From positions 1-64,000 of the forward strand of contig NZ_VZOT01000010.1 of assembly GCF_008801935.1 (NCBI RefSeq): DNA of 64,000 bases, written 5' to 3'. This DNA is from Comamonas kerstersii (GTDB lineage: Bacteria > Pseudomonadota > Gammaproteobacteria > Burkholderiales > Burkholderiaceae_C). Shown here piece by piece: positions 1 through 44,145 of the stretch. The notes under the pieces are model-generated. The model saw nothing but the letters and a program-made list of their open reading frames with translations, ran no database searches and was not told the origin of the DNA. A program made the position numbers and the translations under genes. The first letter of the stretch is position 1. Every line of letters begins with the position of its first letter.

Positions 1-135
1 CACGTCAAAGTTCGCTACCGAGGCTTGAGAAAGAACACGCAGCAATTGCATACCCTGTTTGCCTTGGCGAACTTGTGGATGGCCCGTGGCCGTTTGCTGA
101 AAAACAGCCAATCCAAGCCTGGTGTGGGTGCATAA
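1..135 (+). mobile_element. IS5-family transposase, C-terminal fragment (cut by window edge)
   Basis: Frame 1 is open from the first base to a TAA at 133-135 and reads as the extreme C-terminus of an IS5-type DDE transposase: a KVRYRGL stretch followed by LHTLFALANLWMAR, matching the conserved KARYKGL...LFTLANL tail of the IS5 subgroup. Only about 44 residues are visible, so the catalytic residues lie outside the window and intactness cannot be judged. The right end of the element must lie between the stop codon and the rci gene at 229; no terminal repeat can be assigned without the left end. Confidence 0.7.
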
Positions 136-139
136 AAAG

Positions 140-168
140 CAAGATGCCCGCGAAACGCGGGCATCTTG
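140..168 (-). terminator. Perfect 13-bp stem hairpin, terminator-like on the minus strand
   Basis: CAAGATGCCCGCG (140-152), an AAA loop, then its exact complement (156-168). On the minus strand the stem is followed by GCTTTTTA, giving a rho-independent form; on the plus strand there is no T-run. It lies between the IS5 transposase stop and rci, so it may belong to the insertion sequence and would block antisense transcripts entering it. Confidence 0.6.
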
Positions 169-228
169 AGTGCCAGGGGCAATGGAACATCACACTCGTT
201 CAAGCACTATCACGCTTGAAATCGAGTT

Positions 229-1391
229 ATGCAGAGGTTCCTTAAAGCTATGACGAAGATAAAGCTAAAAGACGCATTAAAAATTTACCGTGAAAAAGTT
301 TCAATTCTAAAGAAGGGCTATGCTCAAGAGCGCTTCCGGTTGCATTATTTAATAAGCACTTTTCTAGGTGATTTATTCGTTGATGAAATAACAAGTGTAG
401 ATATTGCAACATATCGAGATCAAAGACTTGAAAGTACAAATATAAAAACCAATAAAAAATTTCTGCAGCCACAGTCAGACTGGAACTGAGTCTTTTGTCA
501 AACTTCTTTGATGTCGCAAGAATTGAATGGGGTTATTGCGAAGGCAATCCAGTTAAAAATGTTAGAAAACCTAAAGCTGCACCAGGTCGAGATAGAAGGC
601 TTACTTCAAGAGAACTAAAGCTGATCCTTAGATATTGCCACAACCACAGAAATTCAGAGTTGCAAAGCATTATTGTGTTTGCACTTGAGACAGCCATGAG
701 ACAAGGGGAAATTCTGAGTCTGAAGTGGGAAAATATCAATTTGAATCAACGGGTTGCGTGCTTGCCAGACACAAAGAATGGTACTAGGCGGGATGTTCCA
801 CTTTCGCTTAGAGCAAGAGACATGCTGCTACGGCTTGGACAAAAACAAACAGGAAAGGTGTTCACGTATACAAGTAGCGGCATAAAAAGCACATGGAGAC
901 TTATGCTGGAGCGTCTAGAAATTGAAGATTTGCACTTTCACGATTTACGGCATGAAGCCATATCGCTACTTTTCGAAAAAGGCACATTAGACATGATGGA
1001 GATAGCTGCTATTAGCGGACATAAATCACTATCAATGCTAAAGCGCTACACGCATTTACGAGCTCAGAAATTAGTTAGAAAGCTTGAAGCACCCAAGCAG
1101 AAGGGGCGTGCAGCAATACTCAACAACTTGGTTCCATACCCTGCTGAGATTTTCGTTAGGAATGGAAAATTCGTAATACGAATTTTAGATTTCGAGCAAT
1201 TTGAGATTGAATGTGATAACTATGAAAAAGCAGTTGAATATGCGCAAGATAAATTATTGCGGAAAATTATCCTTGAGATGAAATACGAGAAAAGCGTGAC
1301 AGCGCCAGATCAGTACCTGGAGCCTGTACCGCAAGATAGAATAACGATGATTGATCCTCTGGCAGAAACCCACTTTGAGACTTTATTTTGA
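229..1391 (+). pseudogene. rci: Shufflon recombinase Rci, disrupted by a -1 frameshift
   Basis: Tyrosine recombinase of the Rci type, which inverts shufflon segments between sfx sites to switch the C-terminus of PilV. The first part (229-489) is the SAM-like core-binding domain. The second (from about 459 to 1391) holds the catalytic domain with FALETAMRQGEI (Arg I), FHDLRHEAIS (HxxR) and ISGHKSLSMLKRYTH (His and the Tyr nucleophile), plus the C-terminal tail typical of R64 Rci. Frame changes in the A-run at 454-459: adding one A gives NKKISAATVRLELSLLSNFF, as in R64 Rci, and a product of about 387 residues. As written the gene stops at 489. Start 229 or 250. It sits next to the shufflon, as in R64 and SPI-7. 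It could be a true pseudogene, a homopolymer sequencing error, or (less likely) recoding. Confidence 0.85.
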
Positions 1392-1433: not shown

Positions 1434-1442
1434 CAATTTAGG
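1434..1442. repeat. Left target-site duplication of the IS903-group element
   Basis: CAATTTAGG directly before the left inverted repeat, repeated exactly at 2470-2478 after the right one. Nine base pairs is the duplication length known for the IS903 group. Confidence 0.9.
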
Positions 1443-2469
1443 GGCGTTGTTGCATAAATCGCTGTGCTGCAGGCCGTAGGCTTGCGACATGAGCTCCCCC
1501 AATAAACCTCGCTACCGCACCACCAACTGGAAACAGTACAACGCTGCCCTCAAGGCTCGAGGCTCTTTGTCAATTTGGCTGGATAAGCGCATGACATGGT
1601 TTGCCGCTGGAAGCGGCAAACGCGGGCGCAGCCCGAAGTTCTCGGATGCGGCGATTCAATTTTGTTTGACGCTCAAGAACCTGTTTGGCTTGGCGCTGAG
1701 ACAAACTACAGGCTTGGTGGAGTCTGTGCTGCAACTGTGTGGCCTTGCCTGGCCGGCTCCAGACTTCAGCACCCTGTGCAGGCGGCAGCGAGGTTTGAAT
1801 GTCCAAATTCCGTACACCCGCAGTCAAGCAGGCTTGCACTTTCTGGTTGATTCGACAGGCATCAAGTTCCTGGGTGAAGGCGAGTGGAAATGCAAAAAGC
1901 ACGGCGCTGAATACCGCCGTCAATGGCGCAAGCTGCACATTGGTATCGATGCGGATACCTTGCAGATTCGGGCCATTTGTGTGACGAGTAATAACGTCAG
2001 TGATGCCTCGGTGCTACCAGACTTGCTGGAGCAACTACCGCCCGATGAAACGCTTCAAAGTCTTATCGGTGATGGTGCCTACGATACACAGCCCGCCTAC
2101 GAAGCAGTCATCAAGCACGGTGCAATCCCTATCATTCCTCCCCGTAAAAATGCACGAGTGCGCAGAGGTACTGTGTTCGAGCACCGCAACGCAGCGCTTG
2201 CTGCGTGTAGGCGTTTGGGCCGCAGTATCTGGAAACGCTGGATTGGCTACCACCGCCGAAGCTTGGTGGAAACCAAGATGAACTGCATCAAACGTCTGGG
2301 CGAGCGGGTGATGTCCCGTACCTTTGAGCGCCAAGTTAACGAGCTGCATATCCGAGCGGCCATATTGAATCGATTTACTGAACTGGGCCGTCCTCAGACG
2401 GCAGCCGTGGCATAGCCACGGCCGGGGTTGGGGGTAACTCGCCTCAAACTGGATTTATGCAACAACGCC
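1443..2469 (+). mobile_element. Complete IS903-group (IS5 family) insertion sequence
   Basis: A 1027-bp element with perfect 18-bp terminal inverted repeats (GGCGTTGTTGCATAAATC at 1443-1460 and its complement at 2452-2469), one transposase gene, and a perfect 9-bp target duplication. Removing the element and one duplication joins the rci downstream region directly to the first sfx site at 2486, so the insertion fell in the short spacer between rci and the shufflon and broke no gene. The perfect duplication suggests a recent simple insertion. Confidence 0.95.
1489..2415 (+). CDS. IS903-group transposase
   Basis: A 308-residue DDE transposase, full length for the IS903 group. The catalytic triad is visible as D121 (in LVDSTGIKFLGEGEWK), D195 (in IGDGAYDT) and E261 in the family signature GYHRRSLVETKM (Y-R-E-K). 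The N-terminal NKPRYRTTNWKQYNAAL and the RQTTGLVESVLQL segment are characteristic. It starts at ATG 1489 and ends at TAG 2413-2415, and is the only gene of the element. The element appears able to transpose. Confidence 0.95.
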   Translation: MSSPNKPRYRTTNWKQYNAALKARGSLSIWLDKRMTWFAAGSGKRGRSPKFSDAAIQFCLTLKNLFGLALRQTTGLVESVLQLCGLAWPAPDFSTLCRRQRGLNVQIPYTRSQAGLHFLVDSTGIKFLGEGEWKCKKHGAEYRRQWRKLHIGIDADTLQIRAICVTSNNVSDASVLPDLLEQLPPDETLQSLIGDGAYDTQPAYEAVIKHGAIPIIPPRKNARVRRGTVFEHRNAALAACRRLGRSIWKRWIGYHRRSLVETKMNCIKRLGERVMSRTFERQVNELHIRAAILNRFTELGRPQTAAVA

Positions 2470-2483
2470 CAATTTAGGCAGTA

Positions 2484-2816
2484 AATTGTCAATCCGGTAG
2501 CTGGAAAAATGCTCAAGGTTCAGGCGGTACAGGCTTACGTGGTTTTCTTACCCCGTTTAAAGGCAAGGCCACATCTTGCAGCGCGTATGCCGGACATGGC
2601 AATGGCACCAACACATACTCAGCCCGTGTCGATTTGAATGGCGATTTGTATTTGACACGTACATATTGGGGGACAAGTTATACTTGCAAAAATACATATC
2701 AATGCGGTGAAATTTCATTTTTAGGCTATGGGATAAGCGTTGAATTCGGCGTTGATAATGGTGGCGAAGGTGCTGGAGGCGTTTCTCGATGTACAGCAAT
2801 ATTCCCGCTCATCTAA
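2484..2816 (+). CDS. Silent PilV C-terminal cassette 1 (shufflon segment)
   Basis: Promoterless open frame beginning within the sfx site (N-C-Q-S-G-S-W) and ending at TAA 2814-2816, immediately before the next sfx. It encodes about 110 residues with GTGLRGFLTPFKG, a central Cys-containing part and an ending SRCTAIFPLI. The currently expressed cassette at 3443-3776 has GTGIQGFLAPYKG and CSALFPNI at matching places, so the two are homologous. It has no start codon of its own; it is expressed only when inversion between this sfx and the opposing one at 3756 fuses it to the constant region of pilV. Confidence 0.85.
   Translation, partial: NCQSGSWKNAQGSGGTGLRGFLTPFKGKATSCSAYAGHGNGTNTYSARVDLNGDLYLTRTYWGTSYTCKNTYQCGEISFLGYGISVEFGVDNGGEGAGGVSRCTAIFPLI
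2486..2506 (+). repeat. sfx recombination site 1
   Basis: Contains TCAATCCGGTAGCTGG, which matches the sfx consensus of R64 (GTGCCAATCCGGT...TGG). The same 21 bp recur at 2817 and 3047 in direct orientation and at 3756 inverted. Bases diverge right after the site (AAAAAT here, AAGAA elsewhere). Confidence 0.9.
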
Positions 2817-3042
2817 TTGTCAATCCGGTAGCTGGAAGAAGAACTCAAACACAGGATTTGGTGGAATATATACGCGCTATGAAGGGTCGTCAGCTGGGTG
2901 CGCAGGGCCTAACCCGTTAACCAATAGTTGCTCATGCCCAAATGGGTTTACTGAACACGCTACTTTGAGTGGGCTTTGGTGGAATAGAAATCCTGGTGAT
3001 ACAAATATTTATTTGTACCAGTGCCTGCCAGAAAATATGTAG
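2815..3042 (+). CDS. Silent PilV C-terminal cassette 2 (shufflon segment)
   Basis: Open frame from the sfx site at 2817 (NCQSGSWKK) to TAG 3040-3042, about 75 residues. It is shorter than the others and not obviously homologous after the sfx-encoded residues. It is Cys-rich (Cys in SSAGCAG, NSCSCPNG and LYQC), suggesting a disulfide-stabilised binding tip. It is in frame with the pilV constant region if the sfx sites at 2817 and 3756 recombine. No promoter or start codon of its own is visible. Confidence 0.8.
   Translation, partial: NCQSGSWKKNSNTGFGGIYTRYEGSSAGCAGPNPLTNSCSCPNGFTEHATLSGLWWNRNPGDTNIYLYQCLPENM
2817..2837 (+). repeat. sfx recombination site 2
   Basis: Identical 21-bp copy of the shufflon site, directly after the TAA of cassette 1. 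Direct orientation relative to sites 1 and 3, inverted relative to site 4. Confidence 0.9.
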
Positions 3043-3044: not shown

Positions 3045-3347
3045 TCTTGTCAATCCGGTAGCTGGAAGAAGGCACAAGGTAGCTCTGGCGGCATAGGTCA
3101 GTACTACTTGAAAATCAACGGCTACTCATCCACTTACTTCGGTTATGGCAAGCTTGATGGAGACAAGTTCTCCGGCAACATCCAGTGCACGACAAACTCA
3201 AAATGTGGAGCTGGTGGTTTTTACTGGTGCGGCACGAACACCTCGTGTGCGGCAAACTATGTTTTTGACAATGCATATGGCTACTACGGTGGCGCAGTAG
3301 CTGGCGTGCTTGAAATTCCTGTCAACTCCGTAACAAAGTTGTGGTGA
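3045..3347 (+). CDS. Silent PilV C-terminal cassette 3 (shufflon segment)
   Basis: Open frame from the sfx site at 3047 (SCQSGSWKKAQGSSGGIG) to TGA 3345-3347, about 100 residues ending VNSVTKLW. It is rich in Gly and Tyr (YGYYGGAV, YFGYGKLDG) with several Cys. It lies opposite the active cassette on the same invertible segment, so a single inversion between sfx 3 (3047) and sfx 4 (3756) would exchange the two. Its first ten post-sfx residues match the active cassette (KKAQGSSGG), showing that identity extends beyond the 21-bp core at these two sites. Confidence 0.85.
   Translation, partial: SCQSGSWKKAQGSSGGIGQYYLKINGYSSTYFGYGKLDGDKFSGNIQCTTNSKCGAGGFYWCGTNTSCAANYVFDNAYGYYGGAVAGVLEIPVNSVTKLW
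3047..3067 (+). repeat. sfx recombination site 3
   Basis: 21-bp shufflon site, same orientation as sites 1 and 2. Together with the inverted site at 3756-3776 it bounds the innermost, two-ORF invertible segment. Confidence 0.9.
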
Positions 3348-3442: not shown

Positions 3443-4693
3443 TCAGATGTTCGGAAACAGTGCGCTGCATGTGTACTCAGTGGTTCCGCCCCCATCATCG
3501 CTGGTGCTACTGGCGTAATAGAAGACTCCTAGGCCAGTAAAAGTTGCATTCCCACAAACGTGGGTATTGACGCATGTACCTACAACCGAGCCTGATCGAT
3601 TAAGAAGGTTGATGACAAGTCCGCTGTCATTTACGGTTGCACTGACACCTCTTCTTGTGATGGCTGTGCCTCTTGTCATGCAGCTGATAGACATGCCTTT
3701 GTAAGGCGCGAGAAACCCTTGAATTCCGGTGCCGCCAGAGCTACCTTGTGCCTTCTTCCAGCTACCGGATTGACAAGAGAGTATCAAGCCACCAGCACCG
3801 GATGCCACCAGGCCGTCCTTGAGGCATGCAGCCCCTTCTACGACATTCGGGCCATCGAACTCCAAAAACTCTCCAGTCTTGAGGCGTCCTGACGCTGATA
3901 CGGTCTGTGTGGCTACGTCGTCAGCATTTCGGATGCTGTGACGCACGCCAGAGTCGTCTTGCATGTTGATGCTGCCTGTTCTGGGCAAGCTGCCGTCGCG
4001 GCGGTCAAATTCCAGGAAGCCGCGGCTGTCGTAGCCGTTGGTGATGGCAATCAGGCCGGCTGAGGAGGAGGGGTTGGGTGCGACCTGCACGCCATCCTTG
4101 GATACGAACACGCCAGGCGCTTCAGGAAGTGCGACGCCGGCACGGCCGCTGCTCGCAACGGCGGCAGCGATCGATGCTCGGCGCACATCCACCAAGCTTT
4201 GGTCGTGCAACTCGACCATGGGTTGCGTAGACGAAACCAGTGAGGTGACATTGCAGTTGGGGATGAAGCAGCCACTGGTGGGCACGTTCAACTGAATGCT
4301 GAAGTCGATGCTCAGGCCGTTGTAGACCAGTGGACTGGCCAGATCCTCGCGCAACAGATCCATGCGGTAAAGATCGTCGGGGGTTGGAGCACGTACACGC
4401 GAAGAGGGGACGGTATGCCCATTTCGCTGGACCTGCTGGTGTCTTTGGATCTGCGTGAAGAACGTGGTTGCATACGTCTTGACGGCGTCATCAAGCGCTG
4501 AGAGCCTGGCACCCACCATCTCTGCCCGTTTGTCAGCCATGGAGCTGGCCTGGCGCTCAGCGTACAGCGACAAAAAGCCGCCCAAGATGAGCATGGCCAA
4601 CATGACCGCAACGGCAAGAGAAGGCAAGAACATGCCGCGCTGTGCTTGCTTGCATGGTGAAAGCGGGAAGAGTGTGGTGTGTGCCATGGACAT
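3443..4693 (-). CDS. pilV: PilV, shufflon-variable type IVb pilus tip adhesin (current variant)
   Basis: A 416-residue minor pilin/adhesin. In R64-type thin pili, PilV sits at the tip and its variable C-terminus decides which recipient surface is bound in liquid mating. The N-terminus KQAQRG-MFLPSLAVAVMLAMLI has a prepilin-like Gly before a hydrophobic helix, although position +5 is Ser rather than the usual Glu. The constant region covers residues 1 to about 305. The sfx site encodes SCQSGSWKK near residue 307, and the remaining 100 or so residues are the exchangeable cassette ending CSALFPNI. Last gene of the pil operon, 5 bp after the PilT-like ATPase. The three silent cassettes lie downstream. 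Confidence 0.9.
   Translation of the reverse strand: MSMAHTTLFPLSPCKQAQRGMFLPSLAVAVMLAMLILGGFLSLYAERQASSMADKRAEMVGARLSALDDAVKTYATTFFTQIQRHQQVQRNGHTVPSSRVRAPTPDDLYRMDLLREDLASPLVYNGLSIDFSIQLNVPTSGCFIPNCNVTSLVSSTQPMVELHDQSLVDVRRASIAAAVASSGRAGVALPEAPGVFVSKDGVQVAPNPSSSAGLIAITNGYDSRGFLEFDRRDGSLPRTGSINMQDDSGVRHSIRNADDVATQTVSASGRLKTGEFLEFDGPNVVEGAACLKDGLVASGAGGLILSCQSGSWKKAQGSSGGTGIQGFLAPYKGMSISCMTRGTAITRRGVSATVNDSGLVINLLNRSGSVVGTCVNTHVCGNATFTGLGVFYYASSTSDDGGGTTEYTCSALFPNI
3756..3776 (-). repeat. sfx recombination site 4 (inverted, within pilV)
   Basis: Reverse complement of the 21-bp sfx site, in frame inside pilV. It marks the border between constant and variable regions and is the only site inverted relative to the other three, so every productive inversion must use it. 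Confidence 0.92.
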
Positions 4694-4698: not shown

Positions 4699-5592
4699 TC
4701 AGGACATGTTTTTGAGGAGCTGCCTTTGCACCTCTTCACTGAGTGCCGCGAATTCGCCAGCCTTGATGTGTGCTGTTGCCTTGTTATCGCGTGGAAGTGC
4801 GTTGACCTCCAGGCGTCCACCAGGATCAAACTTCTGGTGGACGGCCAGCTGGATGGCCGTAGCCAGTAACGCGTTGGCGTTCTCTTCACCAGCTGCCTTG
4901 GCCATGGCTGCCAATCGCTGCAAGCCTTCAGGAATGCTTTTGGCGTGCATGGTGGCCAGCACCAGGTGGCCATCGACGGCCACGCGCACAAGCTCTGCGG
5001 CCGTGAGGTTCTCACGCACCTCGCCGTAGCCCAGCATGCTGGAATCCTTGGCTGGAAAACACCGCAGTGCTGTGTGAATGGCTTTCTCGTAGCCACCCAG
5101 CTCATCGACATCGAGCTGCTCGCAGTAACCAGACTTGCCATGCCGGCCCTCCAATGGATGCTCGGGAGGATCTTCCAGGGTCAAGCAGTAACCACCGTGC
5201 AACGCCAAGCGCCCAGCAATCGTGGCTGACAAGGTGGTGGTTTTGCCAGCGCCTGTTTGGCCAAAGATCACGACCAGGCCCCCGTGGGTCTTGAGCTTGC
5301 TGCTGAGCAGCAATTGCTTGATCCAGCTGGGCAGCATCAGCTCATCAAGGTTGGGGCACGCAACGGGCATTCGGCGCAATGCATAGCGATCCTCGCGCAT
5401 GCGTTGATTGCGCCAACGGCTGCCATCAGGCAGCTGCAGCATCTTCTTGTCCGGGTGCTCTTTGACAGCAGCTCGAACAGGGCCCACGGTGCTTTCATGA
5501 ACCGCTTCAGCCACTGTCTGTCCGGGAAAAACAATCGTGGGTGCGTCAGCAGCCACAGAAATGTGGAGATCAGTGATTTCTGGCACAGACAT
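4699..5592 (-). CDS. pilT: PilT-like ATPase of the conjugative pilus
   Basis: A 297-residue secretion-type ATPase. Walker A is GQTGAGKTTT near residue 110. Next come an Asp box region (TLEDPPEH), a degenerate Walker B around LGYGEVREN, and the His box ATMHAKS, an arrangement like PilT retraction ATPases. It is shorter than canonical PilT (about 345 residues). PAPI-1-like elements encode an equivalent PilT2 beside PilS2 and PilV2. It may power retraction of the mating pilus; that role is inferred. It lies between pilS (3 bp upstream) and pilV (5 bp downstream). Note that gene symbol pilT in R64 denotes a lytic transglycosylase instead. Confidence 0.8.
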   Translation of the reverse strand: MSVPEITDLHISVAADAPTIVFPGQTVAEAVHESTVGPVRAAVKEHPDKKMLQLPDGSRWRNQRMREDRYALRRMPVACPNLDELMLPSWIKQLLLSSKLKTHGGLVVIFGQTGAGKTTTLSATIAGRLALHGGYCLTLEDPPEHPLEGRHGKSGYCEQLDVDELGGYEKAIHTALRCFPAKDSSMLGYGEVRENLTAAELVRVAVDGHLVLATMHAKSIPEGLQRLAAMAKAAGEENANALLATAIQLAVHQKFDPGGRLEVNALPRDNKATAHIKAGEFAALSEEVQRQLLKNMS

Positions 5593-5595
5593 GAA

Positions 5596-6159
5596 TTAAC
5601 GGCGGAAGTTGAAAGTGATCGTGTTTGCTTCAGACGAATTGCATTGGTCTGCAGCCGTCTCCGAAGCCAGAGCGGTTGTGGCCGTCTTGATCGACGTGGA
5701 GTTCACTGTGGCGCTGACATAGAGGTTGCTGCTGAGGGCGTCCGTGATGTTGTTGCACTCACGCGATGGCACGTTGTTGATGGTTCCCACGGCCAGGTTG
5801 TTGCCAGAGGCAGGGCCAAATGTGATTTCTCCCCATTTGGTGAGAATCTTGCCGGTAGGCACATTGCCAGTCATTTCGGTCATGCCATCCGAAAACCAAC
5901 GGCGCTTGGCCACTTCAGCCGTAGTCAAACCGGCATAGGAAGTCCGGTTGTTGTAACTGGCTTGAATTTTCGGGATGGCCGATTGCAATTCGTTGGTGAC
6001 CTTGGAAGCGTTGTAGCTTGCCAAAATACCTGGCACGTAAGCCCAAGCCAGCAGCACAACAATCGCCGCCAAGCCGGCAGCAATCGACAATTCAATGAGG
6101 CCGTAGCCACGTTGCTTTTTGATTTTGGAGAGGCTTTTTTTGTGAGATTCACGGGACAT
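5596..6159 (-). CDS. pilS: PilS, major type IVb prepilin
   Basis: A 187-residue prepilin, the structural subunit of the mating pilus. A basic leader of about 18 residues ends KKQRG, followed by YGLIELSIAAGLAAIVVLLAWAY: cleavage after Gly, Glu at +5 and a hydrophobic helix, as in type IVb pilins, with a longer leader than type IVa. The C-terminal half carries a Cys pair (about residues 136 and 172) fitting the pilin disulfide loop. No prepilin peptidase gene (PilU) is present in the cluster, so the host PilD presumably processes it, as known for PAPI-1. There is a 60-bp gap to pilR upstream, the largest in the operon. Confidence 0.92.
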   Translation of the reverse strand: MSRESHKKSLSKIKKQRGYGLIELSIAAGLAAIVVLLAWAYVPGILASYNASKVTNELQSAIPKIQASYNNRTSYAGLTTAEVAKRRWFSDGMTEMTGNVPTGKILTKWGEITFGPASGNNLAVGTINNVPSRECNNITDALSSNLYVSATVNSTSIKTATTALASETAADQCNSSEANTITFNFRR

Positions 6160-6219
6160 TTAGTTATCCATTCTAGAAAATGAGAGATTATTGAAACTAG
6201 TGGTGAGTGTTTGAAGCAG

Positions 6220-7281
6220 TTACAAGGATTTCATGGAGGCCTCCGTAACTTGGGCGAATTGCATATTGCTCATGGTGATGAGAAGAATTGCCGCCGCTAC
6301 TAGCAGCATTGCGAGCAGGCTGACGATGATTGCCTTTCTTTGTGCCTCCTTAATGAATCGCTCACCACTATCAAATGCCAACTTATAGATTGCCTGGTTG
6401 AATTCGGTTCTGTCTGCATAATCTTCAATGCGATCCATGGTCGCTTGATTGAACAGGCCAGTGTCCAGCGCAAGGGCGGGGCGGTCAGGTGTTAATTTCA
6501 AGCGATGCAGCATGACGGTGATGTGCCATGCCAGCCAGGGAGATGCAAAACGCCGCATCATCTCCAGCGCTTCTTTGATACCGTGGTTGTTCGATTGCAG
6601 AAGAATCGACAAGGCAATCAAAAAATTATTGCTTTCGTTATCTCTATATGACGACCACGGATTGAAAGGCAAACGCTCAATACGTTTTCTTATGCGGCCA
6701 TACCAATTCGGACGGCTCCACATGACGGCTGCAAATGATGCGGCACACAGAGCCATGAAAAACACTCCGTTATTCACCAAGACGCTAGACAGGAAGTAAA
6801 TGCTTTTGGTGAGGGCAGGCCATTTTTCAAGCGGCAGGATTTGCAAGTATTCCGGCGCGATCACCAGTGCATAGGAGATCAGAAAACCTAGTAGCACCAC
6901 AGCGGAAATGATTGGGGATGCTAAAGACACAAAGTAAATGCTCTGTGTTTTTCCTTTGATTTCAATGCTGCGGCCTAGGTAGTCCATGGCTTCGTCAATA
7001 CGGCCATCCTCTTCAGCTGCTGTAAGCACCATGGTCTCAAACGCCGGCACCGTGTGCTGCAAGGCATATCCGAAGGACATGCGTCGCATCTTATGAAGCC
7101 AATGCTCATAAAGAGGTGCTAAACCAGTACGGCGGCGTCTTGCGCGCTGTGCTCTGGTTTTCAAAAGGTCAATCGTTGCAGCACCATCGCGCAGAGCCAT
7201 CGCAAAATCTTCGTAGAAGTCTTTGCGATTAGCAGCGAAGGCCTTGAATCTGAACTTTGCGAACTTCAGGCCCCAAGTCAT
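6220..7281 (-). CDS. pilR: PilR, inner-membrane platform protein (GspF/PilC family)
   Basis: A 353-residue polytopic protein of the T2SS F/PilC family, the inner-membrane platform on which PilQ acts. Two cytoplasmic GspF repeats are separated by membrane segments (hydrophobic stretches near residues 110-135 and 155-180, and a third near 325-350). It overlaps pilQ by 4 bp (ATGA), indicating translational coupling. The FETMVLTAAEEDGRIDEAM segment is the typical GspF motif. Length matches R64 PilR. Confidence 0.9.
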   Translation of the reverse strand: MTWGLKFAKFRFKAFAANRKDFYEDFAMALRDGAATIDLLKTRAQRARRRRTGLAPLYEHWLHKMRRMSFGYALQHTVPAFETMVLTAAEEDGRIDEAMDYLGRSIEIKGKTQSIYFVSLASPIISAVVLLGFLISYALVIAPEYLQILPLEKWPALTKSIYFLSSVLVNNGVFFMALCAASFAAVMWSRPNWYGRIRKRIERLPFNPWSSYRDNESNNFLIALSILLQSNNHGIKEALEMMRRFASPWLAWHITVMLHRLKLTPDRPALALDTGLFNQATMDRIEDYADRTEFNQAIYKLAFDSGERFIKEAQRKAIIVSLLAMLLVAAAILLITMSNMQFAQVTEASMKSL

Positions 7282-8924
7282 TCTTGTGGCTCCGCGTTGA
7301 CAACTTCGTAGGTCTCAAGTTGCTCAAATTCCAGCTCTAAATCTCTAGGGTCAATCAGCCCTTGAGAGACTTTGTATAAGCCATGCTCAAATGCTGTTTT
7401 CCCTTGCATATCAGGCTCATCAAATGCTGCTTTACGGCTTTGACGCCAGTAAAGCTCAGCTTTGTCGTCATGCCCATCTGCAATATGCTGGCGAATGACA
7501 CGGTCAGGGACCACAATTTCTGCAACAATCGTCGACTTAATAATCCCAAGGTTGTGGCAATGATCACATCCATCTTCATTGCTGCAACAAATGTGATCAA
7601 TATTCAAGCCAAACTTGGCTTTCAGCAGGTTCTGCTTCTTTTGTGGCAAAACATTGGCAGCCGGCAATTTGCATTTATCGCAAAGCACGGGTAGCAAGCG
7701 CTGAAACATCAAGACAGAAAAGAACTGTCGGTCGCCCAGGATGGATCGGTCAATCCCAAGGCGAAAGAGTCGCATGGGCGTAGTCATGGCCGAAGCTGTG
7801 TGTGATGTGGTGTACATCTTGTGCCCTGTCAGCACAAAGTCGGCCACCATCTTGGCTACCACTGGATCACGCGTTTCACCGACCATGATGTCGTCGGGAT
7901 CACCACGCAATATGTCGCGCAAGATTCCTTGGAATTCTTTGTTCTCGTCATCGCCTTCGTGATCGCTGCGCTGCACCGAGATTTGAGAAACCCCAAAAAT
8001 CTTGTACTCAACCGGGTCTTCAACAGAGTAGCGTTTCTTAAATTTACGCTTGGGATCAAACTCCATCATCGTTTTGAGGGTAGTGGATTTACCCGAGCCT
8101 GTTGGCCCTGTAATAATCACCAAGCCAATCGAACGACTTACGGCTAATTCAAGCGAATCGACTTGTGATTGCTCATACCCCAAGTCAGTAAATGTTTTAG
8201 TGTCTGTTCCAACTTCCATAGGAAGAATCCGAACAATCACATCCCAACCATCAGCCACACGAATAAATTTATAGCGCAGCTTGAATTGCCTTCCATGCGC
8301 ACTGTGCCGAATCGTGCAACTCATGGACTTTTGTTCCAGAGAAAACGTGCCAATGCTTCGTGTACGAGCTTCCGCCATATGGGTGAACATATACGAAGCG
8401 ATTTGCTTGCAAGTTTCAACGTCAAAATTGCGGTGTCGATAAAGACGACTATGCACGCGGAAAAGCGTCATGCCGGAGTTTTCACGGCAGCATATATGCA
8501 AGTCTGTGGTGTCTTTCTTGATGGCGATACTGAGCAATTCTTCAACGATGGGTTTCACATCGCTGGAATCCGCAGTTACTTGCGCGCCTGCTGAAATGGC
8601 TGAATTGATTTCAGCAATCAAAGCTGTATCTGCTAGTCGATCCTCAACTACCTTGAAGCCGTATTGCGTAGCTTTATCTCGCAAAGTCAAATGCGACGGT
8701 TTGACAGCAAAACTGTCACTAACCAGGATAACAATTTCACGGTTTCCAAGGTCGAGCACTGCAACAGCAGACAAATCATTCCCTAGAACGCCCAATGTCT
8801 TTGTGATTACCGAGCGGTGCGTGGGTAATTCGATACGTTTTTGAATTCGACCAAAACGCCGCATTCTTCCCAACAGTGCAGCTGGCGAGTTCTGTGCATC
8901 GAGGTCTTTGGTAGCACTATGCAT
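7278..8924 (-). CDS. pilQ: PilQ, pilus assembly ATPase (GspE/PilB family)
   Basis: A 548-residue hexameric assembly ATPase that drives pilin polymerisation. Walker A is GPTGSGKSTTLK near residue 273. The Asp box YSVEDPVEYK, Walker B DDIMVGETRDP and His box YTTSHTASA follow in the usual order. A zinc-binding tetracysteine module (CDKCK ... CDHC) lies near residues 407-460, as in assembly rather than retraction ATPases. Only 10 bp separate it from pilP; it overlaps pilR by 4 bp. Base composition from here through pilR is visibly more AT-rich than in pilN/pilO upstream. Confidence 0.93.
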   Translation of the reverse strand: MHSATKDLDAQNSPAALLGRMRRFGRIQKRIELPTHRSVITKTLGVLGNDLSAVAVLDLGNREIVILVSDSFAVKPSHLTLRDKATQYGFKVVEDRLADTALIAEINSAISAGAQVTADSSDVKPIVEELLSIAIKKDTTDLHICCRENSGMTLFRVHSRLYRHRNFDVETCKQIASYMFTHMAEARTRSIGTFSLEQKSMSCTIRHSAHGRQFKLRYKFIRVADGWDVIVRILPMEVGTDTKTFTDLGYEQSQVDSLELAVSRSIGLVIITGPTGSGKSTTLKTMMEFDPKRKFKKRYSVEDPVEYKIFGVSQISVQRSDHEGDDENKEFQGILRDILRGDPDDIMVGETRDPVVAKMVADFVLTGHKMYTTSHTASAMTTPMRLFRLGIDRSILGDRQFFSVLMFQRLLPVLCDKCKLPAANVLPQKKQNLLKAKFGLNIDHICCSNEDGCDHCHNLGIIKSTIVAEIVVPDRVIRQHIADGHDDKAELYWRQSRKAAFDEPDMQGKTAFEHGLYKVSQGLIDPRDLELEFEQLETYEVVNAEPQE

Positions 8925-8934
8925 TTCAAGCCTC

Positions 8935-9465
8935 TTATTGATTTTCGATGGTGTGAGCTACAGGTCGAACTGCTGCATCAACCGATTGGTTACGCCAATC
9001 CAAGGTAATTGACTTGCGTTGCTGGATACGCTTTCCATCCATTTTCAGCAAGGTAATGCTGTATGGAGTGATGCTTTCTAGCTTCCACCCGTCGATCTTT
9101 GAGATATACGGCTCTTGCATGGAAACTGGAATATGCCGGCCTTGGTAATTGAGTTCTGCGACTTCTTCGCCAACGACGCCCCAAATAGCTTCTAACACTG
9201 GCTCCTGGTCCGAAAAATCTTGCTTGGCTTCCAAGAGTGGAGTGGCATTCGGCGGCATGCTTCCAAGCGCACTATTAGGCAAACGACCTTGATTGTTGTT
9301 GGCACGAATCTTTGCATCGAGTTCAGAGTCGATGAGTTGAACTTGCTTTTCCAAAAGCAAGCCAAAGGTATCGCTGCTAGAGGAAGGATTCACTTGGATT
9401 GCATCGGCTGAATATGCACTTCCAGGAAGTGCAAGCAGAATAAAAACAAGATTAAGGACGCGCAT
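8935..9465 (-). CDS. pilP: PilP, periplasmic pilus assembly protein
   Basis: A 176-residue secreted protein with a signal peptide (MRVLNLVFILLALPGSAYSA), a short helical part, and a C-terminal beta-rich domain (YISKIDGWKLESITPYSITL) of the PilP type that links inner-membrane PilO to the secretin. Start ATG 9465 is preferred over the GTG at 9474 because AGGTG lies six bases upstream of it. It overlaps the end of pilO by 14 bp. Assigned mainly from operon position and domain pattern. Confidence 0.8.
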   Translation of the reverse strand: MRVLNLVFILLALPGSAYSADAIQVNPSSSSDTFGLLLEKQVQLIDSELDAKIRANNNQGRLPNSALGSMPPNATPLLEAKQDFSDQEPVLEAIWGVVGEEVAELNYQGRHIPVSMQEPYISKIDGWKLESITPYSITLLKMDGKRIQQRKSITLDWRNQSVDAAVRPVAHTIENQ

Positions 9466-10747
9466 ATGCCTCACCTTTCAGTGCGAAAGTGGTTGTGTCT
9501 TTGAGGAAAAAACTAACTTCTGTAATTCCGATGGTCGGCGGAAGACGCCGAGCGAAATCCCGAAGTAAATAAGCTGGACCAGTTGCTGTGAAACTGGCGC
9601 GCACAGGCACTTGGACTGTTTCTGCGCCTGGTCCAGTTGCGGGAGTGACGTTCTCCCATGTGCTTGGGGTTTCAAGACTGACCCCCACCAGTCGCGCCAC
9701 CTGGGCCAGGTTGCCGATTTCAAAGTTCAGGCGACTGCGCAGCTGCAACTGCTCCAGCTTTCGTGGAGTGGTGTGGGCGAGAGCAACAGGAATTGGCTGC
9801 TCAATCTGGTCAATATCACTGCCGAGTTCAGGTTCAGGCCATTGCGCGGGCTTGAGCTGGGAATATGAAAGCCATGTCGCAAGTGGCTGGGCGCTGTACC
9901 GTGCCATGCACTGGGATGCTTGGCAGACAACGCCTGCGAGCCTCCAACCACCGATGGCCACTGGCAGCTTGTACAGCGAGTCGGTGTACTCCTTGAGCAC
10001 ATCGATGGGCATGGCCAGGTTGATGCCGGCATCAATCGCTTGCTGCAATCTGACCAGGTTTTGCGCTTGTTCCTGGGCCCTGGCTTGTGCTGCATCGCGC
10101 TTTCGCTGCACTTGCACATGGGCGTCATTGACGAGATAGCCAACGACAGCGGCCGCCAGCAAGCTGAGTGTGGCCACCAACGGCAATGAAACAGGCGAAT
10201 AGCGTTTGAAAGCTGCCTTAACGTAGTCCTGGCTCTCGATGGAGTGACTCAGTATCTCCACTGACATGGAGCGCAAGTCCATGCGGTTGGGCAGCTCCAG
10301 AAAGAGTTCTGGTTGGTCCGTGTAGACCGGCAGATCCTGGGAGGACGGTTGGGAGGTCAGAAAGTCGCGCACCAGGTTCATGGCGTCGTGGACAGTGCCC
10401 ACGAAATCCATGCGTTTGGCAGGCATGCCCTTGGCCAAGGCGAAGACCCAGAATGAATCTGGATCGTCCAGCGTGATCAGCGACAAAAAAGTGCTGTCGG
10501 GGATGGCAGCAGTGAGTAAAACAGCTGCAGAGCGTGGCTTTGCCTTGCTCTCAGCCTTGGTCACGAAGGCGATGCGCTTCTCGTGCTCATCGACCGGGGC
10601 TGGCCACAGGATCTGCCAGGCAGCGTTGGAGCTGCGGGCAAGCTGACGAATCTCCGTGCCCTGGCTTTCCAGGCCGTCAAGGGTCAGCCAGTCCAGCCCT
10701 GCAATAGCCTGGCCATAGCCAGGCACGTCCAGGTGCTTGAGCATCAA
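9452..10747 (-). CDS. pilO: PilO, inner-membrane pilus assembly protein
   Basis: A 431-residue bitopic protein. The N-terminal cytoplasmic half (about 1-180) is actin/PilM-like in size. One membrane helix follows (SLPLVATLSLLAAAVVGYLV near residue 190), then a coiled-coil start (RKRDAAQARAQEQAQNLVRLQQ) and a periplasmic C-terminal domain. This is the R64/TcpD-type fused PilM-N-O arrangement of type IVb systems. The first ATG overlaps the end of pilN by 4 bp. Confidence 0.85.
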   Translation of the reverse strand: MMLKHLDVPGYGQAIAGLDWLTLDGLESQGTEIRQLARSSNAAWQILWPAPVDEHEKRIAFVTKAESKAKPRSAAVLLTAAIPDSTFLSLITLDDPDSFWVFALAKGMPAKRMDFVGTVHDAMNLVRDFLTSQPSSQDLPVYTDQPELFLELPNRMDLRSMSVEILSHSIESQDYVKAAFKRYSPVSLPLVATLSLLAAAVVGYLVNDAHVQVQRKRDAAQARAQEQAQNLVRLQQAIDAGINLAMPIDVLKEYTDSLYKLPVAIGGWRLAGVVCQASQCMARYSAQPLATWLSYSQLKPAQWPEPELGSDIDQIEQPIPVALAHTTPRKLEQLQLRSRLNFEIGNLAQVARLVGVSLETPSTWENVTPATGPGAETVQVPVRASFTATGPAYLLRDFARRLPPTIGITEVSFFLKDTTTFALKGEAYARP

Positions 10748-12474
10748 AGCACTCCCTCAATGATCTGAGGCGTCAGCAACACCAGCACGGCCCGGCGCGA
10801 GGTGTTGTTGCTGATGCTGCCGCCCAGCAGCGGTGACAGAGCGCCATCCAAGGATCTGTCGGAGGAAGTACGCTGCGAGCTGTCAATTCCTGCCAGCAAG
10901 GCGGTCTGGCCACTGGGGGCGCTGCCGTAGAGCTTGTATTGATTGGCCGAAGATGGTGGGTACTCCAGCGTGACGCCGTTGGAGACGAAAGTCTTGGATT
11001 CACCCCGTGTCGATGCATCCAGGGAGAAATCCATCACCACGCTTCCGTTGGGCTGAACGGAGGCGAGCATGGTCAGGAACGTGCCTGTGGTCAGCTGGCC
11101 AGGCTCCACGCTGGGCACCACGGTCGACGGGTTGTTCGTCGTGCTGCTGGCCGCGCCAGAACGCGCTGGATACACGTAGGATTCTGTGGACGTGATGCTG
11201 GAGGGGCGGTTGTTCAGCAAGGAGTAGGTTTCGTCCTTGCGAATGATGACCTTGCCAACTGTGGCCAAGGCCTGGATGAAGCTGCGCGTCGTCGTTTGGT
11301 CGCCCGTGCGGATGACCCCCAACTGCCCCATGCCTGTGGCCGTGGTTTGTCCCGACGGCGAAAACGCGCCGCCACCCCATTTGGCAGCAGCATTCGTGAT
11401 GGCCCAGCTCCAGTCCACGCCCAGGTTGTTCGTGTCGTTGACTGTGATCTCCACTACCTGCATGCGCACTCGGATCTGCCGACCCAGGGCCTTGTTCTCG
11501 GCATCGATGAGCGCCCGAACCTGGTCTTGAACTTCACGCGTGTCGGTGACGGTGACGATGCCGGAGGTGGACACGGCGTACTTGCCCACACCTTTCGTCA
11601 AGGTGCTTTCCAGCGCATCCTTGATGCTCTTGATGACATCGATCGTCGCCTCAGACTTGGCCGTCACGTCAGACGATGAAGTCCCATTGCCAGCCTGCGT
11701 GTTGGTCCCGCTGGTCGAGGAAGTGGCACCTTCACCAGAACTTGCACGCTTGGTGATCGTGTTGCTGATGGTCTGTGTGTTGAGGACCGTGGCCACGTTG
11801 TACGAGCGCGTGACCAGTCGAGAGATGGTGACGGTGTTGTCCCGGTGGTTATAGTCCCAGCCCACGCCAAACGCAGCAGAGATCCTGTCCAGTAACTCAA
11901 CAGGTTCATAGGTGCCGCCGACCATGCTCATGTGGTCGATGATGAATCCACGTTGGCGGCCGCCACTCGACGCTGCAAGTGGTGCCAAGGGGGCCGGCAT
12001 TGGCCCCGACATATTCACTGGGCGGGGCGCTGCAGGTGCGTTTGGCGTGGTGGACACCTCACCAGTACCGATCAGTGCGCTCAATGGGACCAGGGCGTCT
12101 GCAGTGACGCGCACTGGAATTCCGACGATCTTGCTGATTCGGTCTGCATGCACTTGCAATGAAGGGCTGTCAGGAAACGAGTACCGGATCTGCTTGCGCA
12201 ACACCGCCGGTAGTTGGGACTTGCGAGCGACCTTGACGGTCTGGCCACCGAGCCAGGCTGCATCAATTTCGCGTCCAATCTCGGCATTGCGAATGTCATT
12301 GGCACGCACTTCGTCCAGCTTGCCGCGTACCGTGGCCACGTCAGTTTGTGCCTCCGTGGATATGGCTTGCTGCTCCATGATGGTGTTGCAGCCCAGCAGG
12401 CCAGATGCAGCCAGGCAGGCCAGGATGGTTTTACGCAAGGGAATCGTCGACTTCATGCTGGTGATGCCTTTCAT
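10744..12474 (-). CDS. pilN: PilN, outer-membrane secretin lipoprotein
   Basis: A 576-residue secretin forming the outer-membrane channel for the pilus. Lipobox LLGC (Cys29) after a hydrophobic signal indicates a lipoprotein, as in R64 PilN, BfpB and TcpC. An N-domain (FGVGWDYNHRDNTVTISRLVTRSYNV) precedes the C-terminal secretin domain (QIRVRMQVVEITVNDTNNLGVDWSW ... VLLTPQII). A Ser/Thr/Gly-rich insert near residues 235-260 separates them. The start at 12474 overlaps the upstream stop (ATGA); 12456 is an alternative. The best-conserved marker of the operon. Confidence 0.93.
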   Translation of the reverse strand: MKGITSMKSTIPLRKTILACLAASGLLGCNTIMEQQAISTEAQTDVATVRGKLDEVRANDIRNAEIGREIDAAWLGGQTVKVARKSQLPAVLRKQIRYSFPDSPSLQVHADRISKIVGIPVRVTADALVPLSALIGTGEVSTTPNAPAAPRPVNMSGPMPAPLAPLAASSGGRQRGFIIDHMSMVGGTYEPVELLDRISAAFGVGWDYNHRDNTVTISRLVTRSYNVATVLNTQTISNTITKRASSGEGATSSTSGTNTQAGNGTSSSDVTAKSEATIDVIKSIKDALESTLTKGVGKYAVSTSGIVTVTDTREVQDQVRALIDAENKALGRQIRVRMQVVEITVNDTNNLGVDWSWAITNAAAKWGGGAFSPSGQTTATGMGQLGVIRTGDQTTTRSFIQALATVGKVIIRKDETYSLLNNRPSSITSTESYVYPARSGAASSTTNNPSTVVPSVEPGQLTTGTFLTMLASVQPNGSVVMDFSLDASTRGESKTFVSNGVTLEYPPSSANQYKLYGSAPSGQTALLAGIDSSQRTSSDRSLDGALSPLLGGSISNNTSRRAVLVLLTPQIIEGVL

Positions 12475-13304
12475 TGCTGCGCGCCGCCTGTGCGGCTACC
12501 AACATCCGTGACGCGAACCACGTTGTTGCGGGTGTAGAAGGTGGGGTTCAGTGAGGTGGCGAAGGAGCGGAAGAGGCCGCGCACCGCGTCACGAAAATCC
12601 CCTTGGTAGCTCGCCTGTGCAGGGATCAGCAGGTCGTCCGCCGCCTCCCACACCACTTGCCAGCCAGCCTGGTCGGCCCAGCGAGTCAAGGCGTCCAGCA
12701 AAGTCCCATCAGCCGGTGACACTGTCCAGGCCTGCTTAGGAGGCTCAGCAGTTGGCTCCACCGCTGCGGCCGTGGGCACCTGGGTACCAGCTTGCAGACC
12801 TTCAGCGACCGGGTAGGTTTGCGCCGGCACAGGAGCAGCCAGAGCTTGGGATTGCTCCTGGTACTCCAGCTGGATGCCCGAATTGAGCTGCACCAGGTTC
12901 AGCTGTCCGTGCTGCTGCAGCTGGCCATTGACGCTGGCCAGGGCATCAGCCACCGTGTGGCTGGAGGGTTGCTGAACATGCACCTGCTGTGCGGCCGCAC
13001 CTGGTGCTGGTGCGTAGGGGACTTCCAGGCGTGCTGCAAGCAGCTTGGCCAGGCCATCAACGCTGCCAGTCCATGTCACCGCGATCCGTGCATCGAGCAG
13101 CGTGCGCAGCCCCGTTCCAGGCGTTGCATCTGGTGCGACTGGTGGCATGGCCACAAGTTTGGTGATGGCTGCACCCACGGTAGGTTCTGCTGCGACCCCG
13201 GGCGTTGTCGTGGAGGCTCGCTCTAGCGGCACAGATGCCGAGCAACCAGCAATCAAAGCAATGAGGGGCAGGGCACAGGTCAATCGTTTGGGTTGGAGTG
13301 TCAT
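12471..13304 (-). CDS. TcpQ/PilL-C-like lipoprotein
   Basis: A 277-residue putative lipoprotein (lipobox LIAGC, Cys21) whose last 100 residues, from WTVSPADGTLLDALTRWADQ to YTRNNVVRVTD, match the TcpQ/PilL C-terminal domain, a secretin partner. In R64 this domain is the end of PilL; here the PilL N-terminal domain is a separate gene at 42465-42932, so the protein is split. The start at 13304 was chosen for the signal peptide; the open frame extends further upstream without homology. It overlaps pilN by 4 bp. Confidence 0.75.
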   Translation of the reverse strand: MTLQPKRLTCALPLIALIAGCSASVPLERASTTTPGVAAEPTVGAAITKLVAMPPVAPDATPGTGLRTLLDARIAVTWTGSVDGLAKLLAARLEVPYAPAPGAAAQQVHVQQPSSHTVADALASVNGQLQQHGQLNLVQLNSGIQLEYQEQSQALAAPVPAQTYPVAEGLQAGTQVPTAAAVEPTAEPPKQAWTVSPADGTLLDALTRWADQAGWQVVWEAADDLLIPAQASYQGDFRDAVRGLFRSFATSLNPTFYTRNNVVRVTDVGSRTGGAQQ

Positions 13305-13315
13305 GGGGTTCCTAG

Positions 13316-13849
13316 TCAGCGCGCCACCGCATCGGCGATGGCAAATTCCTGGTAGAGCGCAAGCACCTTGGGCACATAGGCCTGTGTCTCGCGGTAGGGC
13401 GGAATGCCCTTGTGTTTGCGTACAGCCCCTGGGCCGGCGTTGTAGGCAGCCAATGCAAGCCGCCAATCACGAAACTCAAACCACATCTGGCGCAGGTATG
13501 CCGCGCCAGTGGCCAGGGCCAGTTCAGCGCGCAGCAGGTTGGTTTCGGGGTCGTGCAAGCCCACGTCACGGGCGGTCGATGGCAGCACCTGGGTCAGGCC
13601 CAGTGCATTGGCGGGTGAGCGTGCTTTGGGATTGAAGCCACTTTCCACTGCGACCAGCGCCTTCAGCAGTGCAGGCTCCAGGCCGTAGTGGTGCGCCACG
13701 GCCGTGATGGCTGCCTCGTGCTCCCAGTAGTTGCGCAGGATCTGCGCACATCCACGCGAGGCGCTGTGCCCGCGCAAGCACTGCTCTGGCCCAGCCACGG
13801 CAAACGCCGGCGTCAGAACCAGGCTGGCAGCGAGGAGGAATGCGCGCAT
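13316..13849 (-). CDS. Lytic transglycosylase (SLT family), conjugation-associated
   Basis: A 177-residue secreted murein hydrolase that opens the peptidoglycan for the pilus or mating pore. Signal peptide [20 protein letters not shown]; catalytic Glu69 in [13 protein letters not shown], followed by [13 protein letters not shown] and [13 protein letters not shown], the conserved SLT motifs. It is functionally equivalent to R64 PilT or VirB1. The start at 13849 gives a proper signal peptide; the open frame reaches 14134 but there overlaps the upstream gene. It lies 8 bp after that gene's stop. Confidence 0.9.
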
Positions 13850-13857
13850 GCGTACTG

Positions 13858-14760
13858 TCACAGCATCCGCATCACGCCCAGCACGATGCTGAGCGTGATG
13901 CCCCCGTGGATCACGTACTTCTTGAGCTGAGCCGTGGTTATGCGACCATCTGAGTAGCTCGACCAGATGGCGGCAAAGCTTGCAGCCATGATCAAGAACA
14001 CGGCAGCAGCACCCAGGCGGTTGGATTGGTCCTTGAGGGCGGACATTTCCACACCAGAGCCTTGCGCGAAGGTTTGCCTCATTGACGACGAGGTGGGTAA
14101 GCAGCCTCCTGGGCAACTCTCCGATGGCTGCCAACCAGAGCCAGGCGTGCTACCTCCAGGCGAAGCACCAGCCTGGCCGTTGCCACCCGTACCAGTCCCT
14201 CCTGTGCCAACACCAGAGCCGCCTGCAGGCACTCCAGCCATCTTGTCGGCCATGGAGCAGATGGTTGTGCCGTTGCGGTCAGCAAAACCAGTGCAGCTGC
14301 CTGAATTGAGCATCTTCTGGCAGTTGCCGATACCCAGCTGCACGCAGGCGAGCACCATGTTGCCGTCGACCGTGCGCCCGTCGAACGTGCCCATGTCGAT
14401 CAGCTGTCGCACCGAACCAGCTTTGAGCGCATCGACAGTCAGCTGGGACCAAGCATCGATCTGCTGCTGCAAGGACCACTGCTGGTATTGGCTAGGCGTG
14501 ACACCGGCGTACTTGTCGATGTTCGCCCGGTTCATCTGCAGCACCCCATAGCAGCATGAGCCGTTGTAGGCGGTGGTGTTACCCCCACTCTCGACACGAA
14601 TTGCCAGGTTGGCCACAGCCTGAGCATTGGCCTTGAGCCAAGCGCTGGCATACGGCGAGTTCTGGATGGCCTGCTGTATTTGAGCCGAAGTCACAACAGC
14701 AGCCATCACAAGTACAGGAATGAGCCAGAGCAGGGCGATCAGACGCTTGGACTTGGTCAT
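13858..14760 (-). CDS. Secreted lysozyme-like protein with C-terminal membrane segments
   Basis: A 300-residue protein. An N-terminal signal/anchor ([18 protein letters not shown]) is followed by a lysozyme-like part with [26 protein letters not shown] and NIDKYAG, which resembles the Glu-containing entry of goose-type/SLT enzymes. A Gly/Thr/Ser-rich, Cys-containing linker (about 185-225) leads to two hydrophobic helices at the C-terminus ([30 protein letters not shown]). Two murein-hydrolase-like genes in tandem suggest division of labour between pilus and pore. Enzymatic activity is inferred. It overlaps both neighbours' ends by a few bases or lies beside them. Confidence 0.55.
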
Positions 14761-15296
14761 TGCAGCCTCAGCGTCTTGTTGCAGGCCTCTACGATCTGGC
14801 CGTACTGGATGGCGCGAAAGTGGATTTGCGTGCCCAACAGCTGGTATTCGATACGGTTGCGACCATCGTCGGCCGCGCTACCAAAGAACATGCAGTAGCC
14901 TGGCAGCTCTGCTGGGCGCGCAGCTGACACAGGCCAGGCTGTCACACGCATCTGGCAGACAGTGAACACGTCGCTTTCGTTGGCACCGTTGGGCGCATCC
15001 TCGCAGCGTGGGCTGCTGGAGGCGTTGAACATGCTGAAGACCAGCTGGCGACCTGCAACCTTTACCTCACCCACCAGCGTGAAAGCGGGCAGGGGTTTGC
15101 CTTGGGTCGCACTGCGTTGCTGTGCAAGCTCTTTAGCCCACAGCTGCTCCATGAGCTTGCGGTCTGAAGCGTTGCCCCTGGTGCCGTAGGCGGCGCTGTC
15201 AAACACCACTTCGCGCATCGGTTTCCACTGAGCCAATGCAGCACTGCACAAAGTTGATGCAAGAGCAGCAACGATGAAATGGTGGGCGCGCTTCAT
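14757..15296 (-). CDS. Secreted protein of unknown function in the pil operon
   Basis: A 179-residue protein with a signal peptide (AALASTLCSAALAQ) and five further Cys, suggesting an exported, disulfide-bonded fold. It directly follows a DsbC-like gene (4-bp overlap), a plausible helper for its folding. I recognise no family. Its position at the head of the pilus operon suggests a periplasmic assembly factor, but this is only context. Confidence 0.6.
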   Translation of the reverse strand: MKRAHHFIVAALASTLCSAALAQWKPMREVVFDSAAYGTRGNASDRKLMEQLWAKELAQQRSATQGKPLPAFTLVGEVKVAGRQLVFSMFNASSSPRCEDAPNGANESDVFTVCQMRVTAWPVSAARPAELPGYCMFFGSAADDGRNRIEYQLLGTQIHFRAIQYGQIVEACNKTLRLQ

Positions 15297-25890: not shown

Positions 25891-25891
25891 T

Positions 25892-27621: not shown

Positions 27622-27635
27622 GGTTTGCCTTTGAA

Positions 27636-34032: not shown

Positions 34033-34041
34033 CGGTCACTC

Positions 34042-35073: not shown

Positions 35074-35074
35074 A

Positions 35075-35812: not shown

Positions 35813-35848
35813 TGGTTTTAAATCTCAGCGTAATCAAGCACAACCGTT

Positions 35849-36223: not shown

Positions 36224-36228
36224 AAGCT

Positions 36229-36612: not shown

Positions 36613-36627
36613 GTTTTGGCTCCAATA

Positions 36628-44141: not shown

Positions 44142-44145
44142 TTAA

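What the first reader, a model, noticed from the sequence alone, without database searches (positions are those of the whole stretch)
454..461. Single-base frameshift in rci at an A-run would lock the shufflon
Adding one A to the six-A run restores an uninterrupted Rci homologue. Otherwise the protein ends 10 residues later and the catalytic domain has no start. All catalytic residues downstream are intact, which suggests a recent event or a sequencing error. If real, PilV is fixed in the present variant unless another Rci acts in trans. A phase-variable homopolymer switch is also conceivable.
Basis: seen in the sequence. Interest (0 to 1): 0.6.

Follow-up and report, generated by a model that had tools for sequence, protein, structure and literature searches.

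The report
Broken shufflon recombinase, probably locked pilus
A gene that normally reshuffles the tip of a bacterial mating pilus looks broken in this mobile element, both by a reading-frame break and by a jumping gene inserted at its start, so the pilus tip is probably stuck in one form; losses of this kind are already known from related plasmids.

Summary
The frame break is in the assembly. The two halves of an Rci shufflon recombinase lie in different frames (250-489 and 456-1391, +), sharing only 456-486 next to the six-A run 454-459. Ten of ten intact relatives examined at this joint read it in one frame. Catalytic motifs remain.

A second IS (1442-2470) lies between rci and the first sfx site without cutting either. 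No second Rci was found in the 3.51-Mb assembly. Four sfx sites, four open PilV cassettes and the pil genes remain.

A phase-variable tract is not supported: an A6 run is expected by chance, although three of ten relatives also carry runs of five or six A in this linker. A sequencing error cannot be excluded, but would leave the IS lesion. A related Delftia element also has a broken rci beside open pil genes. Inactive shufflons through rci loss are in print for E. coli plasmids (PMC3377399). New member of a known kind; modest interest.

The parts
1..241 (+). Right end of a multi-copy insertion sequence, cut by the contig start
   Evidence: 1-228 recurs over its full length at eight other places in the genome, 99-100%; five of these copies diverge from the window after base 241
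242..245 (.). Presumed target TTAA of that insertion sequence
   Evidence: The five compared copies are followed by TTAG (four) or CTAA (one); the left end is not in the contig
250..489 (+). 5' half of rci, native start ATG 250, stop 487-489
   Evidence: aligns with relatives' N-terminal halves
454..459 (+). Six-A run at the frame break
456..1391 (+). 3' half of rci with catalytic domain, different frame, stop 1389-1391
   Evidence: Phage_integrase E 2.4e-27 for 495-1388; motifs
1435..1441 (.). Left copy of 7-bp direct repeat AATTTAG
1442..2470 (+). IS5-family element, transposase 1489-2415
   Evidence: 19-bp perfect inverted ends; DDE_Tnp_1_5 and DDE_Tnp_1; similar records annotated IS5 family; only exact copy in the genome
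2471..2477 (.). Right copy of 7-bp direct repeat AATTTAG
2490..2504 (+). sfx core 1
   Evidence: Exact pattern match
2487..2816 (+). Silent pilV cassette, 109 codons, open
2821..2835 (+). sfx core 2
2818..3042 (+). Silent pilV cassette, 74 codons, open
3051..3065 (+). sfx core 3
3048..3347 (+). Silent pilV cassette, 99 codons, open
3758..3772 (-). sfx core 4, facing the other three
3443..4693 (-). pilV with its present cassette (3443-3775, 110 codons)
   Evidence: Shufflon_N E 1.3e-7
4699..16048 (-). Rest of the type IVb pil locus (T2SSE ATPase, PilS, T2SSF/PilR-type, PilQ-type ATPase, PilO, PilN secretin, TcpQ, SLT, DsbC-like)
24262..40275 (-). Transfer genes of an integrating conjugative element (TraG_N, TraC, TraD, TIGR037xx)
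   Evidence: Six proteins above NCBIfam cut-offs, TraG_N; element borders and excision not tested

Best explanation
This is the shufflon of a type IVb pilus locus on an ICE-like element whose recombinase gene rci has been lost through two lesions: a reading-frame break in the linker between its DNA-binding and catalytic halves, and an insertion-sequence end 8 bases before the native start codon. Shown: the broken frame, the IS junction, four sfx sites, four open cassettes, open pil genes, no second Rci found in the assembly. Inferred: little or no working Rci is made, so pilV stays joined to the cassette at 3443-3775 and the other three cassettes are silent; since those are still open, the loss is probably recent.
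For: Two frames meeting at 453-462 against one-frame relatives. IS end at 241 shared by multi-copy repeats; in four of five plasmid relatives an HTH gene ends at or overlaps the rci start where the IS now lies. No other Rci: next best integrases 31% and 35% identical. Four exact sfx cores in 64 kb, in one 1.3-kb stretch, four open cassettes, one copy of the region in the genome. Deletion of rci fixes pilV in TP114 (PMC9045228, passages).
Against: No reads: the break could be a sequencing error. Rci activity was not tested. An in-frame ATG and an AGAGG stretch in the IS end could still allow some translation of the 5' half. The contig starts inside the IS, so an outward promoter in the IS cannot be judged. 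All cassettes are open, as expected of a working shufflon or of a recent loss. Facing sites share 49 identical bases, a sign of past activity only.
Confidence: 0.72

Rival explanations
1. The frame break is a sequencing or assembly error at the run; the real rci is one frame and only its 5' end is altered by the IS.
For: A homopolymer is a usual place for such errors; only one frame lesion in an otherwise open gene. In sampled stretch L064 two relative ORFs matched in several frames at about 45-900 and this stayed unresolved.
Against: Ten neighbouring proteins match family profiles nearly end to end; five pil ORF pairs are in one frame; in L067, 17,484 of 20,000 bases are covered by long one-frame matches, with two two-frame cases that I take for shadow ORFs. 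Contig starts inside IS copies (C10, C25, C15, C3, C21) suggest short reads, which seldom err at six bases (inference, recalled).
Confidence: 0.18
2. The A-run is a phase-variable or slippage-prone switch, or a programmed frameshift site, that turns Rci on in some cells.
For: Three of ten relatives also have runs of five or six A in this linker (L053, L054, L056).
Against: Those three genes are in one frame. A run of six is short for such tracts (recalled) and expected by chance. RNA after the run folds no better than shuffles, z +1.06.
Confidence: 0.05
3. The shufflon is still active because another recombinase acts in trans.
For: Rci in trans restores shuffling in TP114 (PMC9045228, passages); a XerC/D-type recombinase lies at 16161-17228.
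Against: No Rci relative above 35% identity elsewhere in the assembly; one arrangement only is assembled, though an assembler would hide a minority form.
Confidence: 0.05

Closest known systems
Shufflon and Rci of IncI-type plasmids (R64, TP114, pCT; annotated rci of pN567)
   Same: Rci-like recombinase beside pilV 3' cassettes bounded by sfx sites; 51% identity of the 3' half to the annotated rci of pN567
   Different: Here on an ICE-like element with PFL/TIGR037xx transfer genes; rci split in two frames and cut off by an IS
Naturally inactive shufflons of pO113, pO26_vir, pSERB1 (PMC3377399, passages)
   Same: Shufflon reported as apparently inactive through absence of, or insertion into, the recombinase gene
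   Different: Here a frame break plus an IS just upstream of the start codon; element not an IncI-complex plasmid
rci of Delftia sp. PS-11 (L008 = L011, G031:C7)
   Same: Same gene order rci - sfx cassettes - pilV - pil genes; rci broken, five pil ORFs and three cassettes open
   Different: Its lesions (one TAG, two frame changes) lie where the window's gene is open; the part matching the window's break is beyond its contig end
PFGI-1-type ICEs (PMC2647930, passages)
   Same: Pil cluster with pilV on an element of the same kind of transfer system
   Different: PFGI-1 is reported to have no shufflon; this element has one

Membership tests
Rci (shufflon-specific tyrosine recombinase) | Tyrosine-recombinase catalytic motifs | tested here: met
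   Arg, Lys, HxxR, His and Tyr motifs aligned with ten relatives; names of the residues recalled
Rci (shufflon-specific tyrosine recombinase) | Continuous reading frame of about 375-390 residues | tested here: not met
   Two frames of 79 residues (from ATG 250) and 311 residues; nine of ten relatives are 375-388 aa, L007 305 aa
Rci (shufflon-specific tyrosine recombinase) | Located next to sfx-bounded pilV cassettes | tested here: met
Rci (shufflon-specific tyrosine recombinase) | Inverts DNA between facing sfx sites | not testable with these tools
   Needs reads or bench work
Shufflon | Several cassettes encoding alternative PilV C-termini between facing recombination sites | tested here: met
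   Four sfx sites, three + and one -, four open cassettes
Phase-variable homopolymer switch | Tract longer than chance | tested here: not met
   A6 expected in 83% of simulated genes
Phase-variable homopolymer switch | Tract length varies between cells or isolates | not testable with these tools
   No reads or near-identical isolates were available
Programmed -1 frameshift site | Stimulatory structure downstream | tested here: not met
   z +1.06, 170 of 200 shuffles fold at least as well
Integrating conjugative element (PFL/TIGR037xx type) | TraD, TraC and TIGR037xx proteins above cut-off | tested here: met
   Six proteins
Integrating conjugative element (PFL/TIGR037xx type) | Attachment sites and excision | not tested
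   Borders not determined

The most novel reading that the evidence does not exclude
Shufflon-bearing ICEs of this bacterial group repeatedly lose rci while keeping the pilus, because a fixed adhesin is favoured once the element has settled in one host community; the window and the Delftia PS-11 element would be two separate cases.
Probability: 0.18. Interest if true: 0.45.

Novelty: new member of a known kind. Interest (0 to 1): 0.25.

Why it matters
If real, this is a natural locked shufflon with its silent cassettes still open, and a related element shows a more degraded rci beside open pil genes. Such pairs could show whether adhesin switching is kept or lost after a conjugative element enters a chromosome. 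It also shows that a call of a broken rci should look upstream of the start codon as well as in the frame.

Tried and rejected
Homopolymer switch and programmed frameshifting: tested, not supported. A second Rci in the genome: sought, none above 35% identity. The HTH gene that precedes rci in plasmid relatives: sought in the own genome, only 42% and 29% matches, neither shown to adjoin this IS, inconclusive. Viral contigs: two stretches matched a pattern, none was a relative. 399 family genomes with the pil ATPase: only this genome at E 1e-50; the draw is a sample and seems to have left out G031, which holds a 66% relative (inference). 369 class genomes with an intact Rci: this genome and four others at E 1e-60, the four not examined further. 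Left end and family of the upstream IS: not resolved. Cassettes were first read one base off and redone. Frameshift background: two of seven fetched own-genome stretches tested, one spot unresolved. Of 60 plasmid records shown out of 2271, three had partial matches: H148 is cut by the record start, H149 is a truncated, unannotated rci, H150 was not examined. Integrases below 50% identity (L010, L012-L052 and others) were not used at the joint. My note said that no relative has an A-run at the joint; at that time only four had been looked at in DNA, and one search shows it is wrong for L053, L054 and L056. It is mended here; odds of the switch reading were left at 0.05 because those genes are in frame.

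Full report
Observation. The window is the first 64 kb of contig C10 of a 3.51-Mb, 37-contig genome. At 454-459 there are six A. The ORF 229-489 is in frame 1; the frame-0 ORF is open from 456 to its stop at 1389-1391; they share only 456-486. The 3' half (495-1388) matches Phage_integrase at E 2.4e-27. From 456 on it is 65% identical to a Vogesella plasmid integrase and 51% to the annotated rci of pN567. Of five relatives aligned to the window by script, L006, L053 and L055 give two pieces in two frames that meet at 453-462, L007 two pieces that overlap at 459-516, and L008 lacks the 5' part. Ten of ten intact relatives examined at the joint (L005, L006, L007, L009, L053-L057, L090) are in one frame. 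L007 is shorter (305 aa) and has no sfx site on its locus. The catalytic motifs (names recalled) are present in the window's 3' half.

Is the run special? Not by length. 83% of 2000 first-order simulations of rci contain an A6, and the window has 41 homopolymers of six or more. The linker is lysine-rich, and three of ten relatives carry five (L053, L054) or six (L056) A there while staying in frame. This makes the linker a plausible place for slippage over evolutionary time, or for a sequencing error, but does not show a switch. RNA after the run folds no better than shuffles (z +1.06).

A second lesion. The search with bases 1-228 gave 26 rows: nine over the full length at 99-100% (the window and eight others), five more partial copies at 81-99%, one weak match, and eleven short matches of a hairpin to its own complement. 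Five other full copies were compared: they are nearly identical to the window up to base 241, diverge after it, and are followed by TTAG (four) or CTAA (one); the window has TTAA at 242-245. An IS therefore ends at 241 and the ATG at 229 lies inside it. By alignment with relatives the native start is ATG 250. In four of five plasmid relatives (L053, L054, L056, L057) an HTH regulator gene ends at or overlaps the rci start; L055 has none annotated (the collection's gene table is incomplete). Here the IS takes that place. An in-frame ATG and an AGAGG stretch in the IS end might still allow some translation. A sigma-70-type scan of 1-600 found one promoter-like site, at 495-523 inside rci, no more than shuffles give. 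The contig starts inside the IS, so the region further upstream is unknown.

A third insertion does no visible harm. The IS5-family element 1442-2470 has 19-bp perfect inverted ends, stands between 7-bp direct repeats, and lies between the rci stop and the first sfx site. It is the only exact copy in the genome; the next is 80%. A similar placement is in print: passages of PMC12868207 describe a resistance cassette inserted between the recombinase gene and the shufflon in IncI1 plasmids.

The shufflon. The sfx core (pattern recalled; it agrees with the 3-bp variable site described for TP114) occurs exactly four times in 64 kb: 2490, 2821 and 3051 on +, 3772 on -. The four cassettes are open for 109, 74, 99 and 110 codons; the last is joined to pilV. 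The facing stretches 3045-3093 and 3730-3778 share 49 identical bases. The region occurs once in the genome. The pil genes look intact: five ORFs (PilV constant part, T2SSE ATPase, PilS, PilR-type, PilQ-type) align in one frame between the window and the Delftia locus, besides antisense shadow matches. Between 24 and 40 kb lie transfer genes of an integrating conjugative element, six proteins above their NCBIfam cut-offs and a TraG_N protein.

No Rci in trans was found. The catalytic half finds itself and two integrases at 31% and 35% identity in the own genome.

Sequencing error? It cannot be excluded without reads. Against a generally error-prone assembly: TIGR03744, 03752, 03749, 03747 and 03754, TraG_N and four defence proteins, ten proteins in all, match nearly end to end; TIGR03756 matched in two stretches, the best covering 118-295 of 298. 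In stretch L067, 17,484 of 20,000 bases are covered by long one-frame matches to relatives; two relative ORFs match in two frames, which I take for shadow ORFs without proof. In L064, 9,682 of 20,000 bases are covered and two relative ORFs match in several frames at about 45-900, unresolved. The other five fetched stretches were not tested. Five contigs start inside copies of the upstream IS, which suggests a short-read assembly (inference).

A parallel case. The Delftia sp. PS-11 locus L008, which gives the same matches as L011 from G031:C7, has an rci with one TAG codon and two frame changes, beside five open pil ORFs and three open cassettes. The window's rci is open at those three places, so these lesions are separate. 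Whether Delftia shares the window's break cannot be seen, because its contig ends first. Two cases are too few to claim selection. For scale: of 60 plasmid records shown out of 2271 with a match, 57 have one piece covering at least 97% of the query; of the other three one is cut by the record start, one is a truncated rci and one was not examined. Intact copies are thus the rule in that list.

What is known. Passages of PMC9045228: deleting rci in TP114 leaves one pilV variant, and rci in trans restores shuffling. Passages of PMC4083329: inactivating rci in pCT lowers transfer to a Salmonella recipient and not to E. coli. [quoted passage not shown] Passages of PMC3032704: pRK1 has a pil cluster but no rci and no shufflon repeats, and also changes in pilS and pilU. 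Passages of PMC2647930: PFGI-1 has no shufflon. Eight library searches list no title that names this locus; I saw listings and passages, not whole papers, and the library lacks most subscription journals. The kind of event is known; this instance I did not find described.

Verdict. Interest is modest.

Noticed in passing
19322-22710 (+): A SIR2-type protein (641 aa, PADLOC Aga_SIR2 E 8.4e-217; Pfam SIR2_2) directly followed by a short prokaryotic Argonaute (487 aa, pAgo_I E 6.9e-205): a candidate short-Argonaute defence pair carried by the element.
   Followed up: partly
43251-45651 (-): A PtuA/PDC-M01A-like ATPase (E 6.9e-197) and a PDC-M01B-like partner (E 2.9e-93), a Septu-like candidate defence pair.
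   Followed up: partly
16161-17228 (+): XerC/D-type tyrosine recombinase (TIGR02225 E 2.8e-60, below its cut-off) at the far end of the pil locus.
   Followed up: no
L053:7495-8427: The Vogesella plasmid shufflon also holds an IS5-family transposase, here between two sfx sites at 7320 and 8649.
   Followed up: no
L091:2501-3001: A truncated, unannotated rci on Pseudomonas aeruginosa plasmid pPA942-IMP45, with an HTH gene before it.
   Followed up: no
42378-42385: Run of eight G, the longest homopolymer in the window, within ORF 41361-42461 (-) that had no family match.
   Followed up: no
3045-3093 and 3730-3778: The facing sfx stretches are identical over 49 bases, well beyond the core, as if homogenised by earlier recombination.
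   Followed up: no
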